64,000 nucleotides of DNA from the IMG/VR virus record IMGVR_UViG_3300032268_000887, positions 38,687 through 102,686 of that record; one strand, given 5' to 3'. Below are positions 40,743 through 57,316 of the stretch, one piece after another. The notes beneath the pieces were generated by a model that was not told the DNA's origin, made no database searches, and saw only the letters and a program-made list of their open reading frames with translations. Each line of letters begins with the position of its first letter. Position 1 is the stretch's first letter. The DNA is from a virus. Position numbers and translations under genes: made by a program.

Positions 40743-41342
40743 TTAAAGGTTTTCCCAAAGCGGATTTCCCCAATGAATATCTTCGTATTTTAAACCTAAA
40801 TATGGAGATTCTCCAATTGGAGCATTCCAAAAATCAGACAGGAACATGTCTTTTTCTGTGACCGTTGTAAAGCCTCTCATAAAGTCTTTAGTTTCTGGAA
40901 AAATAATGCAATCTCCAACCTTGAGTTCTTTTGCTATTTTATAATTTTCAAATTTAAATATTCCGCCACCATGGGAATCATTCCATTTGACTATTGATCT
41001 AAATACGTTTTTTGGCCTATCTTCTGAATAAAACATTGTTATTTCTTTTCCTGGAGAATATCTTAAAATATAACTTTTTCCAAGAATGGGACGATTATAT
41101 TCAATTCCTGTTATTTTAGTAACTGCTTCTTTTATAGCAATTGCATATTTTTCAAATATAGATACAACCTCTTTTGGCATATCCCCATAAGTAGTTATAT
41201 CAAAATTTATTCCAGGAATATTAAATAAAGAGTCATGAAGCGGTATATGATCTTCTGGAGTATTAAATTTTACAGAATTGAGAAATTCTTCAATAGTCTT
41301 TAAATCTTCTTTAGTAGCAACATTTATTATTTGGTAACTCAT
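40743..41342 (-). CDS. degenerate 2OG-oxygenase-like protein
   Basis: A 199-residue protein whose core (SIVKWNDSHGGGIFKFENYK, then KVGDCIIFPETKDFMRGFTTV) has the double-stranded beta-helix pattern of 2OG-Fe(II) oxygenases, including the GGxxxF turn and VGDxIxFP strand. The iron ligands appear lost: the HxD place reads YSED and the distal His place reads MRG. It may be an inactive or repurposed cupin-like protein. AAGGAGATAAA precedes the ATG. It follows the ribonucleotide reductase gene. Confidence 0.55.
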   Translation of the reverse strand: MSYQIINVATKEDLKTIEEFLNSVKFNTPEDHIPLHDSLFNIPGINFDITTYGDMPKEVVSIFEKYAIAIKEAVTKITGIEYNRPILGKSYILRYSPGKEITMFYSEDRPKNVFRSIVKWNDSHGGGIFKFENYKIAKELKVGDCIIFPETKDFMRGFTTVTEKDMFLSDFWNAPIGESPYLGLKYEDIHWGNPLWENL

Positions 41343-43501: not shown

Positions 43502-44146
43502 TTATAATAATGGGATCCATGGGATACCTGGATCATGTATTGCCTTACTTAGTGGAACAATATTAAAAGCAATGGTTATTCTTGGCTTGTCAAATGGCCA
43601 GGTATCTACTCCATGGTGGTAACCATTTAAAGAAAGAAGTATTTTTCCATTTTTGTTTTCATGTGCAAATAAAACATCGTGATCTAATTTATAAACTGTA
43701 GAGTTTGGCTCAGCATCAATTGCGTAATACCCATGAAACTCTGTTGGATCGCTACCGTGATCATCGTAAGCAATTTGTCCTGGTGTAACCACTTTAGGAC
43801 CTTTAGTATAATTAATCCAAGCAGACATGTAGTATTTTTCTTTTGCATAGTCAATTTCGTAATAATCGCAAGCCTCAATTACTAAATTTTTAACTAAAAG
43901 CATTACGTCATGCATTCTTGTATCCATAAAATTTAAAAAATTATAAGATTTTTGAAACGCTTGCATTTTTTCAGCATTATCTTTTTTGTACTCGATTGCG
44001 TCTCCAGTTATTTGATCTGTAGTAGACTTTAAATATTTCCAAGTTTCTTCTATAAAATTTCTTAACCCTGGATCATTTCTGTAAATTTCACCAGTAAAAA
44101 ACTTATGTGGCTTCCCAGTTTTTTCTAACATTGTTTGATTTGACAT
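43502..44146 (-). CDS. 2OG-oxygenase-like protein, tandem copy 3
   Basis: A 214-residue member of a three-gene paralogous array. It keeps the FHGYYAIDAEPNSTVYKL strand, the GYHHG pair and the PRITIAFNIVP strand seen in its two neighbours, and the C-terminal WIPL. The first iron ligand region reads DDHGSD instead of WHEHGG, so ligand geometry may differ. I use the ATG at 44146 with AAAGGAGATAAA just upstream; the frame runs to a GTG at 44197 overlapping the previous gene. This is the most divergent copy. Confidence 0.65.
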   Translation of the reverse strand: MSNQTMLEKTGKPHKFFTGEIYRNDPGLRNFIEETWKYLKSTTDQITGDAIEYKKDNAEKMQAFQKSYNFLNFMDTRMHDVMLLVKNLVIEACDYYEIDYAKEKYYMSAWINYTKGPKVVTPGQIAYDDHGSDPTEFHGYYAIDAEPNSTVYKLDHDVLFAHENKNGKILLSLNGYHHGVDTWPFDKPRITIAFNIVPLSKAIHDPGIPWIPLL

Positions 44147-44178
44147 TTTATCTCCTTTTTTATTATTATTTTTGCTGT

Positions 44179-44841
44179 CTAGGTTAGTGGTATCCACTTA
44201 TGTGGATCAAAATTTAACATGTTTTTTGCTGGAGATATGTCATAGGCAATAGTTATTCTTGGTTTATCTTCAAACCAATCATCTCTTCCATGTGGATGAC
44301 CAGTCTCTGACAGAATAGCCCTATTATTTTTGTTGATATTTTCAAAAATTTTGTCATCTTCTGCATCTATTTTATAAAATGTTGAAGAGGGTTCTGCATT
44401 AACACAGTAGTATCCATGAAACCAAGGAGCGCCCATGCCACCAGAATGATCATGAAAATGATGTGGATTTTTTAATGGATTTACGCCTCCATTATCTTTT
44501 TCTGATTTTATGGTTTTATAATCTAAATTAAACCAACCATGTATAAAATATTGCTCATTTTCAAAGTCTATGTCGTAATAATTGCACGCTTCTTTTGCCA
44601 ATTTGGAAAGTGATTTATACAGATTATGTATGGCTGGATGCGTAAATGTAAAAATATTATAATGATCTATTCCAAAAATTGTAACAGCGCCTGGATTATT
44701 TTTATGCTTTAAAAATAAATCATTGGGGATGCTGCAAATATTATCTTTTACAATTTTTTCGTTTAACTGTGTTAGATATTCAAAAAGACTATCTAAATTA
44801 TTATCAACATATGTATCAAAGAATTGATGTTTTTTTTTCAT
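44179..44841 (-). CDS. 2OG-oxygenase-like protein, tandem copy 2
   Basis: A 220-residue paralogue of its neighbours. Core motifs are HFHDHSGG, APWFHGYYCVNAEPSSTFYK, ETGHPHGRDDW and PRITIAYDISP, followed by C-terminal WIPLT. The HxH and GHxH elements plus the Arg of PRITIA suit iron and co-substrate binding in a phage oxygenase family like 2OG-FeII_Oxy_5. The ATG at 44841 overlaps the upstream stop as ATGA. Function unknown; a protein or glycan hydroxylase is plausible. Confidence 0.68.
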   Translation of the reverse strand: MKKKHQFFDTYVDNNLDSLFEYLTQLNEKIVKDNICSIPNDLFLKHKNNPGAVTIFGIDHYNIFTFTHPAIHNLYKSLSKLAKEACNYYDIDFENEQYFIHGWFNLDYKTIKSEKDNGGVNPLKNPHHFHDHSGGMGAPWFHGYYCVNAEPSSTFYKIDAEDDKIFENINKNNRAILSETGHPHGRDDWFEDKPRITIAYDISPAKNMLNFDPHKWIPLT

Positions 44842-45485
44842 GCTAGAGGAATCCAATGTTGCTCCCAGTCATACATAACCCCTTTAAAAGGAATAACATC
44901 ATACGCAATGGTTATTCTTGGACCAGCCCAATCCCAATCAGCCATAGCATGAGGATGTCCAGTTTCAGAAAGAATAGCCCTATTGTTTTTATTTATATTT
45001 TCAAAATCTTTATCAAATACTTTATAATGAGTTGTTGATGGTTCTGCCTTTACAGAATAATACCCGTGAAACCATGGAGCGCCCGAGCCACCATGCTCGT
45101 GCCAATCAAGTTTTCCAGTATGGCTATAATTAACATTAAACCAGCCTTGTACCCAAAAATCTTCTTTTTCAAAATCAAGATTATAATGTTTGCAAGCCTC
45201 AACAGTCATGTCCCTTACTGATCTAAATAATTTATGAATTGCTGGGTGATAAAATTGAAAAACATTATATTTATTCCACTTGCTTGTAGTTATACTTCCG
45301 GAAGAATCCCAAATAGTTTTTTCGCCTTTGTCATCTTTTAATATTTCGCCATTTTTAATACGTTCAGACTGTGCAATTAAAAAATTTGATAAATTGTCTA
45401 AGTCAGAGTCTAAAGTCCTTTCAAAAAATTTATGAGGGACGTCTTTATTTTGACTAGTACTTTTTAAAGGAACATTTTCGTACAT
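44838..45485 (-). CDS. 2OG-oxygenase-like protein, tandem copy 1
   Basis: A 215-residue protein, first of the three-gene array. Candidate iron ligands are His129/His131 (WHEHGG) and His177 or His179 (TGHPHA), with Arg190 in GPRITIAYD as the likely 2-oxoglutarate binder. The C-terminus reads HWIPLA, matching the WIPL ends of copies 2 and 3. GGAGATTAA precedes the ATG and TATACT lies about 20 bases further up. The array lies directly behind a Hint-domain repeat protein, a possible substrate. Confidence 0.7.
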   Translation of the reverse strand: MYENVPLKSTSQNKDVPHKFFERTLDSDLDNLSNFLIAQSERIKNGEILKDDKGEKTIWDSSGSITTSKWNKYNVFQFYHPAIHKLFRSVRDMTVEACKHYNLDFEKEDFWVQGWFNVNYSHTGKLDWHEHGGSGAPWFHGYYSVKAEPSTTHYKVFDKDFENINKNNRAILSETGHPHAMADWDWAGPRITIAYDVIPFKGVMYDWEQHWIPLA

Positions 45486-45533: not shown

Positions 45534-46766
45534 TTACTTATTGTGTACTAAATAGTCTCCAGCAACAAACCAGTCCTGTGGCTCACAGTTAAACTGATAA
45601 ACGGTATGATTTTCATGAATTGTGTCGATAGTAACTATTGGGCATTCAAGTAAAGACCCATCTTCATTTACCTTAATCAATATATCTTCAGTAACAATTG
45701 ATGTTGTAGGAATAATCATGTAAGATCCTTCTCTTTTTATAAACATTGGCTGTGTAGCAGAATATTTCTTTTCTATTTCTCCATTAAAATAAATTACTTG
45801 TCCTTTAACACTTGGAACAATATTAACTACTTCAACTTCAACTAGTCCTTCTGAGGTTAAAGATGAAGATGTAAATCCAGAGTAGTCAAAATCTCCAGAA
45901 CTTTCAAGTGTTGGTATTTCAGAAATACCTAATGAAACTATTGTATCTCCAACATTAACGTCTTTAGCAGGAACTAAACCATTTGGTGTTCTAATTAATG
46001 TGTCCGCTTCAATACATGCACCACCACCCTGTGAAAATCCATATGGAGTGAAACCAAATGGCGTAAAACCAAACGGTGTAAAACCAAATGCTCCGAATGG
46101 TGTAAAGCCAAATGCTCCGAATGGTGTGAATCCAAAAGCACCGAACGGTGCGAATGAGAATGGTGTAAATGAGAATGATGTTACTGATCCTGAATTAGAA
46201 GATGTACCTGAATTACCATTAGCGTTAGTTGCATAAACGTTGTATGTTTGTGCTGTTCCCGCTTCTTGCGCTACAGTAACAGATGTTCCTCCCTGTGTTC
46301 CTCCCTTGCCATCGCTAGATGCCCAGGTGTAAGAAGTAATAGCACTTCCACCAGTTGCTGGTGCTGACCAGGAAACGTCATCATTTGCTGCTGCACCTTG
46401 TGCAGTTGCGCTAGGTGCTGATGGAGTTGCAGGAACTGTTGTTGCAGTTACTGGGCTGCTTGCTGAACTTGCTGCCGATGTTCCATAAGCATTAGTTGCA
46501 GTTACTGTAAATGTATAAGCAGTATCACTTGATAAACCTGTAACCCGAATTGGAGAACTCGAGCCAGAAGCGGTGTAATTTCCTGGGGTTGATAAAACTG
46601 TATAAGAGGTTGCAGCATTTCTTGGGTCTGCAGTGAAGGAAACATCTACAGCACCATCATCATATGGACGAGCAGTTCCAACATTGGATGCAGAATTAAT
46701 TGTTGGTGCATATGGCATTAAAAAGTCATTAGCACCTTGCGATTTACGACCACTTCTTTTACTCAT
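45534..46766 (-). CDS. FnIII + FTPFG-repeat + Hint self-processing protein
   Basis: A 410-residue virion-type protein in three parts. Residues 20-110 and 112-196 are two fibronectin III-like domains. Residues 197-245 are a Phe/Pro/Gly tract built from FTPFG/AFG units. Residues 251-410 are a Hint (intein/hedgehog-like) domain: Cys251 opens CIEADTLI, block VGDTIVSL follows, SATQP stands at the usual block B place, and the chain ends FVAGDYLVHNK with His408-Asn409. Cys and His-Asn are what such domains need for thioester formation and cleavage. There is almost no C-terminal extein, so hedgehog-like release or attachment is likelier than splicing. GGGGAGAAGAG precedes the ATG. Confidence 0.82.
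   Translation of the reverse strand: MSKRSGRKSQGANDFLMPYAPTINSASNVGTARPYDDGAVDVSFTADPRNAATSYTVLSTPGNYTASGSSSPIRVTGLSSDTAYTFTVTATNAYGTSAASSASSPVTATTVPATPSAPSATAQGAAANDDVSWSAPATGGSAITSYTWASSDGKGGTQGGTSVTVAQEAGTAQTYNVYATNANGNSGTSSNSGSVTSFSFTPFSFAPFGAFGFTPFGAFGFTPFGAFGFTPFGFTPFGFTPYGFSQGGGACIEADTLIRTPNGLVPAKDVNVGDTIVSLGISEIPTLESSGDFDYSGFTSSSLTSEGLVEVEVVNIVPSVKGQVIYFNGEIEKKYSATQPMFIKREGSYMIIPTTSIVTEDILIKVNEDGSLLECPIVTIDTIHENHTVYQFNCEPQDWFVAGDYLVHNK
46032..46178 (-). repeat. coding tandem repeat (FTPFG/AFG units)
   Basis: Imperfect 12- and 24-base units inside the Hint protein gene, coding for FGFTPFG and FGAFGFTPFG. Third-position differences between units show selection on the peptide. A similar array lies at 56337-56462. 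Confidence 0.85.
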
Positions 46767-50806: not shown

Positions 50807-51370
50807 TTACAGTTTTTCAATCCAAACCTGATAACCTTTTTGTAAAATTTTAATCTTAAGTTCGTTGTTTTTTAAAAATTTATCAATACCATTTAAAGGT
50901 TTTAAGTCAACATTTCGACTTGGGTGCTCCCATCCGTAATCATCAAAGGCAAGGATTCCTCCTGATTTTAAAAGCGGGAATGCTAAAATTGCATCATTAT
51001 AAACACCTTCTGCCGAATGATCTCCATCTATATATATAAAGTCAAACTTTGCATCAGAAGAAGATAGGTATTCTTTGCTATCTTTTTTGATCTTTATAGA
51101 ATTAGGGAACTGGCTCATTTTTTCATCATACATTGATTCAATTTCATCCCAGTCAAATTCTGTGTGAATTTTTTCTTTTGAGCCTTTCCAAGTATCTATG
51201 TCTGTAAGGCTTGATGCTTTGTCTGTTAATATATTTTTTAGCAGCCACTCAGAGCCATGGCCAAGGTATACCCCAATTTGTAAAAAGTTAACATCTGGAA
51301 GATCTTTATACTTGTTTAAAAATTTTTCAAATGTTGGAATGTTGCTAGAAAACCAATTTGGGTACTTCAT
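50807..51370 (-). CDS. class I SAM-dependent methyltransferase
   Basis: A 187-residue methyltransferase of the Methyltransf_24 style. The SAM-binding loop is VNFLQIGVYLGHGSEWLL, with FDFIYIDGDHSAEGVYNDA as the conserved acidic strand and GGILAFDDYGW as the next strand. GGAGGAATC precedes the ATG, which overlaps the glycosyltransferase gene by 26 bases. With two glycosyltransferases beside it, methylation of a sugar on the virion or cell surface is plausible (inference). Confidence 0.78.
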   Translation of the reverse strand: MKYPNWFSSNIPTFEKFLNKYKDLPDVNFLQIGVYLGHGSEWLLKNILTDKASSLTDIDTWKGSKEKIHTEFDWDEIESMYDEKMSQFPNSIKIKKDSKEYLSSSDAKFDFIYIDGDHSAEGVYNDAILAFPLLKSGGILAFDDYGWEHPSRNVDLKPLNGIDKFLKNNELKIKILQKGYQVWIEKL

Positions 51371-52094
51371 GATTCCTCCAATATTCTAAGGTCTGTTCTT
51401 TTGATGTTGTGTGAATAGAAAATTTACCAGTCTCTTCTGCTGTTTTATCAAATTCTAAATTAATTGAAGACCCATAATCCATTGTGTAAGTAAAAAGTGG
51501 AATAGATAAGGTTTTACAACCATCATATATCAGAATATCTGCTAATGCTGCTCGTGAAGTTGGCAAGACATATTTTCCATCAACAAAGTATTGTTTTAAT
51601 AGAGTCTCCGCCCTGCTTCTTTTAATTAAATAACATGCTGCAGACCAATCTCTTTTTTCTTTCATATGTAAGGATGGATTGACTCTATAGTTATGAATAA
51701 TGCAAAGTTGTAACATGTCATATGGTTTTTTTATTGATTCTACGAAATTAGAAAATTCAAAATTCCAAAAGTCTACAGTTTCTAGACTTAAATCGTCTTC
51801 AGTAATAATTGCATATTCAGAATCTGAAGTTTCTAGCCAATGTTTAATTGTTTCAAGATGCGAGATAGTTGCTCCTAATTCATTTTTTGCTAATTGAAGT
51901 TTATCTTTTTCAAAAACAATTTTATCAAAATCAAAAGTGTCACCATCATAGGCTGGAATAATTTTATAATCTTTTATTTCATACTTTTCAAAATGATTTT
52001 TTATATAGTCTAGCCTGTCTGACTTAGACTCAAGATTAATTACGTATATTGGGGACAACCCCTTTAATTTATTTAAACCAGTATGTTCCAGCAT
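51345..52094 (-). CDS. family 25 glycosyltransferase
   Basis: A 249-residue GT25-type transferase. It opens with IYVINLESKSDRLDYI, the usual first strand, has ELGATISHLETIKHWL and the IITEDDLSLE acidic motif that binds metal and nucleotide sugar. In bacteria such enzymes act in lipopolysaccharide synthesis and in animals on collagen hydroxylysine. The second role is of interest because the phage has a collagen-like protein and many hydroxylase-like genes. The ATG overlaps the upstream gene by 26 bases. Confidence 0.78.
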   Translation of the reverse strand: MLEHTGLNKLKGLSPIYVINLESKSDRLDYIKNHFEKYEIKDYKIIPAYDGDTFDFDKIVFEKDKLQLAKNELGATISHLETIKHWLETSDSEYAIITEDDLSLETVDFWNFEFSNFVESIKKPYDMLQLCIIHNYRVNPSLHMKEKRDWSAACYLIKRSRAETLLKQYFVDGKYVLPTSRAALADILIYDGCKTLSIPLFTYTMDYGSSINLEFDKTAEETGKFSIHTTSKEQTLEYWRNHEVPKLVF

Positions 52095-54588: not shown

Positions 54589-55197
54589 CTAAAAATAGCC
54601 GACTAAGCAATATTTTTTTCCAGAAACAACTTCTTCTTCTTTGTGTTGATATTGATTGCTAGATGGAAAAATTAAAACATCTCCCTGCTCTATGCGAAGT
54701 GGCTCATTGCCAAGCCTATCTTTAAAATAAAACTCTCCACCAACATAATCATTGTTAAGGCCAATAATTATTGTATATTTATTTTTAGATCCATCTCTAT
54801 CGATGTTGTTGTGAAAAACATTTGACTCTTTTTGTAAGCATATAGTCCAATCTTTTACTCCCTTAATTTTTAATTCCAAACTATCAACATAATCTTTTAT
54901 AAAATTAAAAGCATAAAAAGTAATTAAACTTTTTAGTTTGCATGTTTCGTAATAGCGTTTTGTTTCTTCTGGATTGTTGTTATTTATAATTTTTTCTAAA
55001 TTATATGTACCAGATTTTAAATAGAAAACTTGTTTGTCTAAAGTAAAATCAGTATCTCTTATATTTGACTTTGAAGAAATCTCCCAAACATTTCCATCTA
55101 TTGCTGCGCTTTCAATACTCTCTAAATTTAATAAAAAATTTGGAACATTATTGTTTTTATATAAAAATATATCGCTATCTAATTGTTTTTTTATCAT
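54589..55197 (-). CDS. prolyl-4-hydroxylase-like 2OG oxygenase
   Basis: A 202-residue protein whose C-terminal half has the P4H pattern: VFHNNIDRDG, TIIIGLNNDYVGGEFYFKD, GDVLIFPSSNQYQHKEEEV, KKYCLVGYF. The distal His is present; the HxD site reads HNN and the usual Arg is Lys, so activity is possible but not certain. It stops one base from the lysozyme stop and starts two bases after a degenerate Hint gene. Of all the oxygenases here it is the most P4H-like. Confidence 0.65.
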   Translation of the reverse strand: MIKKQLDSDIFLYKNNNVPNFLLNLESIESAAIDGNVWEISSKSNIRDTDFTLDKQVFYLKSGTYNLEKIINNNNPEETKRYYETCKLKSLITFYAFNFIKDYVDSLELKIKGVKDWTICLQKESNVFHNNIDRDGSKNKYTIIIGLNNDYVGGEFYFKDRLGNEPLRIEQGDVLIFPSSNQYQHKEEEVVSGKKYCLVGYF

Positions 55198-55198
55198 T

Positions 55199-55828
55199 TT
55201 ATATATTGTTTCCTAACAAGATCATATTTTCTGTTACATAGAAATTTCCATTAGATAAAGACATAGAAAATAATGGCATTTTGTTTGTTGCTAATAAAGC
55301 GGACTTTATTTGTTTGTCAAAAACAAAAAAGTTTTTAGTGTCTGTTTTAATATCTTTTTCTAAAGATATAAAATATTCAGGTTCTGGTTCAATATTAATA
55401 TTTAATTTATTAATATTTAATCTTGAAATCGTTTTTATTTTAACTATATTTTCATCTTTAATTTTACTGTCGTCTTTTCCCTTAGCAACAACATTGACAG
55501 TTAAGAATAACTGACTTTCGTGTACAAGACTAACATTATTATTTGCGTCAATAAGTGGGATAATTCTAGACTTATGTTGGCTATGGTGCCTGATGTCTGT
55601 AATGTGGGATGATGATATTTGCAACTGTTCTGGATTAATTTTTATTGTATTGTTATTAAAATATTTAAAATATGTATCTGCAGAACTATCTAGATCTTCT
55701 CCCAATAAATTAATAGATAAAATTTCATCACCAAACTTTAAATTTTCAATTTCAACTAATTCTCTATTTTTTAAATAAATTTTTGTTCCTATTGGAATAA
55801 ACCCGAACGCTTCATCATTTATTGACAT
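55199..55828 (-). CDS. degenerate Hint-domain protein
   Basis: A 209-residue protein that begins almost directly with a Hint-like block (GFIPIGTKIYLKNRELVEIE, then LKFGDEILSI) and ends FYVTENMILLGNNI. Aligned with the two intact Hint proteins, the first Cys is Phe or Ile and the penultimate His is Asn. No repeat or N-terminal partner domain remains. It is probably unable to self-process. The middle is longer and charged. It lies directly behind the intact Hint gene, suggesting duplication and decay or a helper role. Confidence 0.6.
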   Translation of the reverse strand: MSINDEAFGFIPIGTKIYLKNRELVEIENLKFGDEILSINLLGEDLDSSADTYFKYFNNNTIKINPEQLQISSSHITDIRHHSQHKSRIIPLIDANNNVSLVHESQLFLTVNVVAKGKDDSKIKDENIVKIKTISRLNINKLNINIEPEPEYFISLEKDIKTDTKNFFVFDKQIKSALLATNKMPLFSMSLSNGNFYVTENMILLGNNI

Positions 55829-55838
55829 ATAAAATTTT

Positions 55839-56696
55839 CTACTTATTATGTACTAGATAGTTTCCGGCAACAAACCAGTCTTGTGGTTCGCAACCAAACT
55901 GATAAACTGTTGCATCCTCTGTTAAATAATCAATATTTAAAATTTCTGTTTCTAGCAATTGTCCATCTGGATCAATAGAAATTAAAAAGTCTCCAACTTC
56001 TATGGCACCAGAAGGAATTATTTCATAATAAGTATTTCTTTTAATAAAAAATGGCTGAGATGTAGAAAATAGTGCAGAATTATCTTGATTAAAAAACAGC
56101 AAACTATTTTTTACTGATGGAAGAATGTCTACTATTGTGGTAAGAGTTTTTTCTTGTACCGTTAATGTTGATGATATAAAACCAACATAGTCAAAATCTG
56201 ATCCACCATCTATTCCGGCATTTGGAATTTCGTCAAAAGAGACAGAAACAATTTCATCCCCAACCTGTAAATCTTTTGCCTTTATTTTTCCACTTGAAGT
56301 ATCAATTAATGTATCTTCGTGAACGCAAGACGGTGGAGAAAATGTAAATGGCCCTGGAGTAAAACCAAATGGGGTAAATCCAAATGGGGTAAAACCAAAT
56401 GGGGTAAAACCAAATGCTCCAAACGGAGTAAAACCAAATGCTCCAAACGGAGTAAAACTAAAAGTATAATTTACTAGGTTAACATTTGTTCCAATAGCCT
56501 GAACTTCTCCTGCTGCAATACTTTGAGTTTTAATTGTATTGTTTTGCCCAGCATCTGTTGTATTTTCATTTGTTGTATTATAAACAAAGCCAGCATTGGT
56601 TAAATTTGTCTCTGCAGTAGTTTTTGCAACCCCAACTACGTTTGGGACTGAGTTTTTACGTGATCCCTTATTTCCACGGCCAATATTTTTTGCCAT
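55839..56696 (-). CDS. PASTA + FTPFG-repeat + Hint self-processing protein
   Basis: A 285-residue protein. Residues 17-76 are a PASTA-like domain (VPNVVGVAKTTAETNLTNAG), known elsewhere to bind cell-wall material. Residues 79-120 are FTPFG/AFG repeats. Residues 124-285 are a Hint domain opening CVHEDTLI at Cys124, with VGDEIVSV, then STSQPFFIK, and ending CEPQDWFVAGNYLVHNK (His283-Asn284). The end is nearly identical to that of the protein at 45534. The ATG at 56696 overlaps the upstream stop (TAATG). Confidence 0.82.
   Translation of the reverse strand: MAKNIGRGNKGSRKNSVPNVVGVAKTTAETNLTNAGFVYNTTNENTTDAGQNNTIKTQSIAAGEVQAIGTNVNLVNYTFSFTPFGAFGFTPFGAFGFTPFGFTPFGFTPFGFTPGPFTFSPPSCVHEDTLIDTSSGKIKAKDLQVGDEIVSVSFDEIPNAGIDGGSDFDYVGFISSTLTVQEKTLTTIVDILPSVKNSLLFFNQDNSALFSTSQPFFIKRNTYYEIIPSGAIEVGDFLISIDPDGQLLETEILNIDYLTEDATVYQFGCEPQDWFVAGNYLVHNK
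56337..56462 (-). repeat. coding tandem repeat (FTPFG/AFG units)
   Basis: Array of 12- and 24-base units coding for FGFTPFG and FGAFGFTPFG between the PASTA and Hint parts, similar in peptide to the array at 46032-46178 but differing at silent sites. Confidence 0.85.
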
Positions 56697-57316
56697 TATG
56701 CAACCAAATCTCCCATAGCAACCCAAGTGTTTGCTGCACGTTTTACAATCGTTGCGCTAGACCATTGTGTTCTAATTTTTAATCCAGGGGTGGCATTTAC
56801 TGTTACCCCACCTGCACCAGCAATTGTAACTTGAGATGAAGATGTTTGCAAAATATCAATAGCGGTGCCAACTGGGAAATTAAATGTGGCGTCTGCGGGA
56901 ATTGTTAAGGTTCCGCCAGCAGACATTTCTATCATCTTAAAAGAATCTGATTCCACAATAGTGTAAGAAGATGCTTGTGGATTAAAAGTGTATAGAGGGT
57001 CTACTATTGATAGCCAGGCTGTTCCATCATAAACTTGTAAGTCATTTATAACATTTCCGTTAGCATCTTGTTTTAAAAATACAACAGTTCCATAAATTGG
57101 TGTAGCAATTGCTGCAATTCTTGCTGCTGGGTTTAAAAAGATATTAACATTTTTTGCAACTACGGTAGAGTTTAAAGATACAGTAGAGTCAAATGTTTGT
57201 GCTGCAGTCCAAGTATATGCTGATGCTGTGTTTACTTTTCCCGCAAGTTCATACCACTGATCAGTAGCCTCATCATAAACATATCCTGGTCTTGGCGTTG
57301 AATTAAATGTTGGCAC
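56696..57316 (-). CDS. tail fibre protein with shared C-terminal module
   Basis: A 206-residue fibre. The N-terminus reads TFNSTPRPGYVYDEATDQWY. Then follow a linker and a C-terminal module (KMIEMSAGGTLTIPADATFN to NTWVAMGDLVA) matching the end of the 500-residue fibre at 46811, including AGAGGVTVNATPGLK. It starts at a GTG overlapping the upstream stop (TAGTG) and ends overlapping the Hint gene by one base. Confidence 0.72.
   Translation of the reverse strand: MPTFNSTPRPGYVYDEATDQWYELAGKVNTASAYTWTAAQTFDSTVSLNSTVVAKNVNIFLNPAARIAAIATPIYGTVVFLKQDANGNVINDLQVYDGTAWLSIVDPLYTFNPQASSYTIVESDSFKMIEMSAGGTLTIPADATFNFPVGTAIDILQTSSSQVTIAGAGGVTVNATPGLKIRTQWSSATIVKRAANTWVAMGDLVA

What the first reader, a model, noticed from the sequence alone, without database searches (positions are those of the whole stretch)
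45534..46766. Hint domain with no C-terminal extein on a FnIII/repeat protein
The chain ends one residue after His408-Asn409, so protein splicing would have almost nothing to join. Cys251 and the His-Asn pair are intact. The simplest reading is hedgehog-like or BIL-type processing: a thioester at Cys251 that is cleaved or transferred to another nucleophile, leaving the Phe/Pro/Gly tract at the new C-terminus.
Basis: partly seen in the sequence, partly recalled or inferred. Interest (0 to 1): 0.65.

Follow-up and report, generated by a model that had tools for sequence, protein, structure and literature searches.

The report
Self-cleaving-type domain ending phage tail proteins
An uncultured tailed phage carries two tail-region proteins that end in a Hint domain (the fold that lets inteins and Hedgehog proteins cut themselves), and the same head, Phe/Pro-rich tract and terminal Hint layout recurs in over a hundred environmental phage contigs, usually next to genes for prolyl-hydroxylase-like enzymes, which suggests an unstudied way of finishing phage tail proteins after they are made.

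Summary
The ORF is on the minus strand (46766 to 45534). Residues 251-409 form a Hint domain with Cys251 and His408-Asn409, and the chain stops after Lys410. At least 121 IMG/VR loci encode relatives. In 35 representatives below 80% identity, Cys1 and the His of His-Asn are invariant, Asn is kept in 32, Gln replaces the block-B His in 30, and a Phe/Pro-rich tract always precedes Cys1. [quoted passage not shown] The Hint gene usually sits at the head of a cluster of 2OG-Fe(II) oxygenase genes; one of the two families is closest to prolyl 4-hydroxylases. The best reading is a BIL-type terminal domain that makes a thioester at Cys251, resolved by cleavage or transfer, on a tail protein whose Pro-rich tract is probably hydroxylated. 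Chemistry, cleavage and hydroxylation are inferred; only sequence, predicted fold, selection and gene order are shown. It is a new variant of a known kind.

The parts
45534..46766 (-). Hint-terminated Fn3 protein, 410 aa (P0001)
46437..46709 (-). First Fn3-like domain (about residues 20-110)
   Evidence: Pfam fn3 E 3e-7 above cut-off; AF2 pLDDT mostly over 90
46176..46433 (-). Second Ig/Fn3-like domain (about residues 112-197)
   Evidence: PKD_6 just under cut-off; AF2 and Foldseek tandem FnIII matches
46017..46175 (-). Phe/Pro/Gly-rich repeat tract (residues 198-250, TPFGF/TPFGAFGF), predicted disordered
   Evidence: AF2 pLDDT below 50 for 204-247; present in all 35 representatives; DNA tandem repeats
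45540..46016 (-). Hint domain (residues 251-409)
   Evidence: profile match to 2LWY; Pfam Hint_2/Intein_splicing on members; pLDDT about 95
46014..46016 (-). Cys251, block A nucleophile
   Evidence: 35/35 representatives
45750..45752 (-). Gln339 at the block-B catalytic His position (SATQP for TxxHP)
   Evidence: alignment to 2LWY; Q 30, H 4, E 1 of 35
45540..45545 (-). His408-Asn409, block G
   Evidence: His 35/35, Asn 32/35
45537..45539 (-). Lys410, the whole C-terminal extein
   Evidence: sequence; not a splicing nucleophile
44838..45485 (-). First of three tandem 2OG-Fe(II)-oxygenase-like genes (family B) directly downstream
   Evidence: AF2 pTM 0.85; Foldseek PDB matches to prolyl/proline hydroxylases and other 2OG oxygenases
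44179..44856 (-). Second family-B gene
43502..44197 (-). Third family-B gene
   Evidence: weak PHROG 2OG oxygenase match
40743..41342 (-). Family-A-like 2OG oxygenase gene
   Evidence: profile E 5.5e-30
55839..56696 (-). Second Hint-terminated protein: PASTA head, same tract, Hint, VHNK end (P0002; ATG at 56696, longer TTG ORF to 56726)
55199..55828 (-). Possible stand-alone degenerate Hint-like protein, no Cys1, ends LLGNNI
   Evidence: hhalign only 34% probability: inconclusive
54589..55197 (-). 2OG-FeII_Oxy_3 gene in the second cluster
   Evidence: Pfam above cut-off

Best explanation
This is a phage tail-region protein (two Fn3/Ig-like heads, a disordered Phe/Pro/Gly tract) finished by a C-terminal Hint domain that works like an A-type bacterial intein-like (BIL) domain with no real C-extein. 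The Hint domain most likely converts the Ala250-Cys251 peptide bond into a thioester. Water or an amine nucleophile then resolves it, releasing the roughly 160-residue Hint domain and leaving the head plus tract, free or attached to a partner, with the tract at its new C-terminus. Asn409 cyclisation could only shed Lys410, so it is accessory. The neighbouring 2OG-Fe(II) oxygenases probably hydroxylate prolines of the tract. Shown: sequence, predicted fold, conservation, purifying selection, gene order. Inferred: the chemistry, its timing, the nucleophile, the hydroxylation and the role in the virion.
For: Hint identity: profile best match 2LWY BIL E 6e-6, then inteins; Pfam Hint_2 in 19 and Intein_splicing in 14 of 27 members. 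AF2 gives a confident all-beta domain over 250-410. Foldseek BFVD matches phage proteins annotated Hint. Catalytic ends conserved: Cys1 35/35, His 35/35, Asn 32/35; the first alignment-based scan used block-F patterns without Cys1 or His-Asn, so those residues were not selected for in it. dN/dS 0.07-0.30. Asn is lost in one clade but Cys1 kept. Variable heads on one tract+Hint end: 11 head-type changes on a 34-tip tree. 2OG gene at +1 in 21/33 representatives, 11.9 expected by random placement within each locus, P 9e-5; upstream 4/81 against 86/201 over +1 to +7. Family A best PDB match prolyl 4-hydroxylase 3ITQ E 1e-10. Tract type and 2OG family co-vary 8/8 against 0/19.
Against: Gln replaces the block-B His in most members, which in classical Hint domains promotes the N-S acyl shift; some inteins lacking it still splice (PMC7664689). 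Active-site geometry was not measured (no coordinates). No Hint structure appears in the top 50 of the PDB fold search, which the Fn3 heads dominate. The tract/enzyme co-variation rests on only 2-4 independent contrasts. No proteomics exists for these uncultured phages.
Confidence: 0.5

Rival explanations
1. The Hint domain no longer reacts; it is kept as a folded C-terminal cap, oligomerisation or partner-binding domain of a tail protein.
For: Block-B His replaced by Gln in 30/35 and by Glu in one; block-F Asp position not conserved; some copies lose Asn; stand-alone Hint copies without His-Asn persist beside Hint-tailed genes.
Against: Cys1 (first residue) and His-Asn (last residues) have no evident structural reason to be invariant at 40% median identity; the block-B position is almost always Gln or His, so it is still constrained.
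Confidence: 0.22
2. The Hint domain is a removable intramolecular chaperone: it helps the repetitive tail protein fold or assemble, then cuts itself off by hydrolysis, as the unrelated S74 domain does on tail fibres.
For: Always C-terminal on repetitive tail-region proteins with interchangeable heads; S74 autopeptidase precedent on low-complexity tail fibres (PMC7824862).
Against: No evidence of trimerisation or assembly role; Hint domains are not known as chaperones (own knowledge).
Confidence: 0.15
3. Only the C-terminal step works, or the domain splices in trans: Asn cyclisation or BIL-type ligation joins the head to a partner's N-terminus.
For: His-Asn conserved 32/35 and Lys after Asn in most; BIL domain trans-splicing without nucleophilic side chains is cited in PMC7664689.
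Against: C-extein is one residue; Asn is lost in a clade that keeps Cys1.
Confidence: 0.08
4. A decaying selfish intein that happens to sit at the end of the gene.
For: Intein-like fold.
Against: No homing endonuclease, no C-extein, fixed terminal position in 35 divergent representatives, dN/dS 0.07-0.30.
Confidence: 0.03

Closest known systems
A-type bacterial intein-like (BIL) domains, e.g. the BIL domain of PDB 2LWY
   Same: Hint fold by profile, Cys1, terminal His-Asn, no Cys/Ser/Thr at +1, attached to variable proteins
   Different: Block-B His replaced by Gln in most, a C-extein of 1 to about 9 residues, phage tail-region context, obligatory Phe/Pro-rich tract before Cys1, 2OG-oxygenase neighbours
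Hedgehog (Hog) autoprocessing domain
   Same: C-terminal Hint with nothing to splice; thioester at Cys1 expected
   Different: No sterol-recognition region; His-Asn retained; block-B His mostly Gln
Hint domains of phage NCTB and Yersinia phage fHe-Yen9-02 tail proteins
   Same: C-terminal Hint ending 3-12 residues after His-Asn, beside tail fibre genes
   Different: Collagen-like heads, block-B His present (EQHP, HEHP), under 30% identity, no Phe/Pro tract
Polymorphic-toxin HINT domains (PT-HINT)
   Same: Hint used as autoprotease in a larger protein; weak Pfam PT-HINT matches in 6 of 27 members
   Different: No toxin or any other domain after the Hint
S74 intramolecular chaperone of phage tail fibres
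   Same: C-terminal self-releasing domain on tail proteins
   Different: Unrelated fold and chemistry (Ser/Lys)

Membership tests
A-type BIL domain | Hint fold | tested here: met
   profile to 2LWY E 6e-6, inteins follow; Pfam Hint_2/Intein_splicing; confident AF2 domain
A-type BIL domain | Cys at position 1 and C-terminal His-Asn | tested here: met
   Cys 35/35, His 35/35, Asn 32/35
A-type BIL domain | Block-B Thr-x-x-His motif | tested here: not met
   SATQ here; Q 30, H 4, E 1 of 35. Known active inteins can also lack this His (PMC7664689)
A-type BIL domain | No Cys/Ser/Thr at +1 | tested here: met
   Lys in most representatives; Leu, Val or Tyr in the others
A-type BIL domain | Autocleavage | not testable with these tools
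   needs protein
Hedgehog Hog domain | Sterol-recognition region after Hint | tested here: not met
   chain ends at Lys410
Splicing intein (class 1) | C-extein with Cys/Ser/Thr at +1 | tested here: not met
   C-extein is one Lys; no extein in other frames
Splicing intein (class 3) | No Cys/Ser at position 1, with a WCT motif instead | tested here: not met
   Cys1 invariant; Cys394 is C, M, T, A or L across members
2OG-Fe(II) oxygenases (neighbours, family A) | 2OG-FeII_Oxy profile | tested here: met
   Pfam 2OG-FeII_Oxy_3 in 11/11 members; 3ITQ E 1e-10
2OG-Fe(II) oxygenases (neighbours, family B) | Double-stranded beta-helix fold and 2OG-oxygenase profile | tested here: inconclusive
   fold matches many 2OG oxygenases at E 4e-6 to 6e-4, TM up to 0.65; no Pfam or NCBIfam match; iron ligands not assigned

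The most novel reading that the evidence does not exclude
These phages run a tail-protein finishing line: 2OG oxygenases (and in some loci glycosyltransferases) decorate the Pro-rich tract, and the Hint domain then uses its Cys thioester to attach the decorated head covalently to another virion or host-surface molecule, a phage counterpart of Hedgehog lipidation, with Gln standing in for the block-B His.
Probability: 0.12. Interest if true: 0.9.

Novelty: new variant of a known kind. Interest (0 to 1): 0.6.

Why it matters
Hint domains are known from inteins, Hedgehog proteins and bacterial toxins. Here is a large, fast-diverging phage family in which Hint is always the last domain of tail-region proteins, always behind a Phe/Pro-rich tract, with Gln at a catalytic position and hydroxylase genes alongside. 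If active, it would be a post-translational maturation route for phage tails, give a substrate to some of the many 2OG oxygenases found in aquatic phage genomes, and offer a natural SxxQ variant for studying thioester chemistry. Simple expression tests would decide it.

Tried and rejected
Hidden C-extein by frameshift or readthrough: the other frames stop soon. Cellular relatives: a scan of 84,980 species genomes gave only a short match in a DNA polymerase intein. Cultured relatives: none by tblastn of P0001's Hint or of two other members (one partial match, E 0.03), and only remote NCTB (E 4e-4) and fHe-Yen9-02 (E 2) with P0002. PDB fold search on the full-length model: swamped by Fn3 hits, so it could not test the Hint fold directly. 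Stand-alone protein 55199-55828 as a Hint: only 34% hhalign probability, left open, while L113/L128 stand-alone copies are clear (E 4e-21). Literature: no paper found on terminal Hint domains of phage tail proteins; the papers on phage inteins that were read concern terminase and RNR. Decaying intein rejected on dN/dS.

Full report
What is there. The ORF lies on the minus strand, 46766 to 45534, 410 aa. Two Fn3/Ig-like domains are followed by a Phe/Pro/Gly repeat tract and a Hint domain that starts at Cys251 and ends at His408-Asn409; one Lys follows, then the stop. Pfam sees fn3 above its cut-off and, weakly, Intein_splicing and Hint_2. AlphaFold2 on a 28-row alignment gives high confidence for both heads and for residues 250-410, and disorder for 204-247. 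No C-extein is hidden in other frames.

Is it Hint? A 27-member profile finds as its best solved structure the bacterial intein-like domain 2LWY (E 6e-6), then several inteins. Members match Pfam Hint_2 (19/27) and Intein_splicing (14/27). Fold comparison with viral proteins gives phage proteins annotated Hint; three unnamed hits have lengths equal to three phage NCTB proteins annotated as intein-domain proteins (identification by length is inference). The PDB fold search was dominated by the Fn3 heads and did not list Hint, so positioning of catalytic residues was not measured.

The family. A second copy in the same window (55839-56696) has a PASTA head, the same tract and a 51%-identical Hint. 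Scans of IMG/VR found 6, 52 and then at least 121 loci; cellular genomes and cultured phages gave no close relative. Heads vary (Fn3, PASTA, Thr-rich, Pro-rich and others), but the last stretch before Cys1 is always Phe/Pro-rich (40-93% F+P in 35 representatives): TPFGF, FFPPFFP, FAPPGF, FFPHFPPH.

Catalytic residues. In 35 representatives under 80% identity (median pairwise 40%): Cys1 35, His 35, Asn 32, block-B Gln 30, His 4, Glu 1. The first alignment-based scan used block-F patterns only, so Cys1 and His-Asn were not pre-selected there; the later scan did use a Cys1 pattern as one of two alternatives. On the Hint tree the block-B residue changes four times, Asn twice. The clade without Asn (L085, L113, L128) keeps Cys1. 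dN/dS in 13 pairs is 0.07-0.30. So the domain is maintained, and the N-terminal reaction is the part most consistently kept. Gln at block B is the chief doubt; some inteins lacking this His still splice (PMC7664689).

Neighbourhood. Directly downstream of P0001 lie three tandem genes of one family (B) that Pfam and NCBIfam do not know. Its predicted fold (pTM 0.85) matches 2OG-Fe(II) oxygenases, including Pseudomonas prolyl-4-hydroxylase. In most other loci the neighbours are family A: Pfam 2OG-FeII_Oxy_3 11/11, best PDB match prolyl 4-hydroxylase 3ITQ E 1e-10. Among 33 representatives the next gene is 2OG in 21, against 11.9 expected by random placement within each locus (P 9e-5); upstream positions 4/81, positions +1 to +7 86/201. 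The Hint gene thus marks the upstream edge of a 2OG cluster. Loci with TPFGF tracts carry family B (8/8, PASTA-headed copies left out), loci with FFPP, APPGF or HFPPH tracts never do (0/19; Fisher 4.5e-7), but only 2-4 phylogenetically independent contrasts exist, all concordant, so this is suggestive only. GlcNAc-type glycosyltransferases (PF11397) follow the Hint gene or its 2OG gene in some loci, and a GT25 gene lies at 51345-52094 in the window. 2OG genes are common in aquatic phages anyway (PMC12774648), so linkage is not proof of substrate.

Mechanism. The anatomy fits a thioester at Ala250-Cys251, resolved by water or another nucleophile, with Asn409 cyclisation accessory. Steps shown: sequence, predicted fold, conservation, selection, gene order. 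Steps inferred: all chemistry, hydroxylation of the tract, and role in the virion. The best alternative is an unreactive structural cap.

Host and phage. The record is a 102,686-base IMG/VR virus with tape measure, portal and head protease genes. The portal is 47% identical to Streptomyces phages, a hint of an actinobacterial host, not proof.

Verdict. Observation confirmed; interpretation partly supported; new variant of the Hint/BIL kind. Searches found no description of this architecture, but family members are already deposited under names such as Fibronectin type III, PASTA or Hint domain protein.

Noticed in passing
window 55839-56726 (-): Second Hint-terminated protein with a PASTA head; in further records two Hint genes also lie about 9-11 kb apart.
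   Followed up: yes
window 55199-55828 (-); L113:4472-4999; L128:2281-2775; L061:6483-6944: Stand-alone Hint-like genes directly after Hint-tailed genes; clear in L113/L128 (hhalign E 4e-21) with Cys kept and His-Asn lost, uncertain in the window.
   Followed up: partly
window 51345-52094, 50807-51370 (-): GT25 glycosyltransferase and a methyltransferase between tail-fibre genes; GT25 also contains procollagen galactosyltransferases (own knowledge).
   Followed up: partly
L134:4495-5679, L125:5241-6152, L141:3968-5158: GlcNAc-type glycosyltransferase (PF11397; shown for L134 and L125, look-alike in L141) next to the Hint gene or its 2OG gene; that family includes the Skp1 hydroxyproline GlcNAc-transferase (own knowledge).
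   Followed up: partly
contigs 3300009159_000062 (L019/L023) and 3300042366_000810 (L085/L113): Fn3- and PASTA-headed Hint domains of one phage cluster as close relatives: head swapping or gene conversion.
   Followed up: partly
L032:7962-8666 and similar genes in L031, L042, L106: DUF6065 (PF19541) genes recur inside the 2OG clusters, function unknown (Pfam match run only for L032; others by sequence look).
   Followed up: no
window 54589-55197 (-): The 2OG gene of the second cluster seems to have Asn where the first iron-binding His of HxD is expected; possibly degenerate.
   Followed up: no
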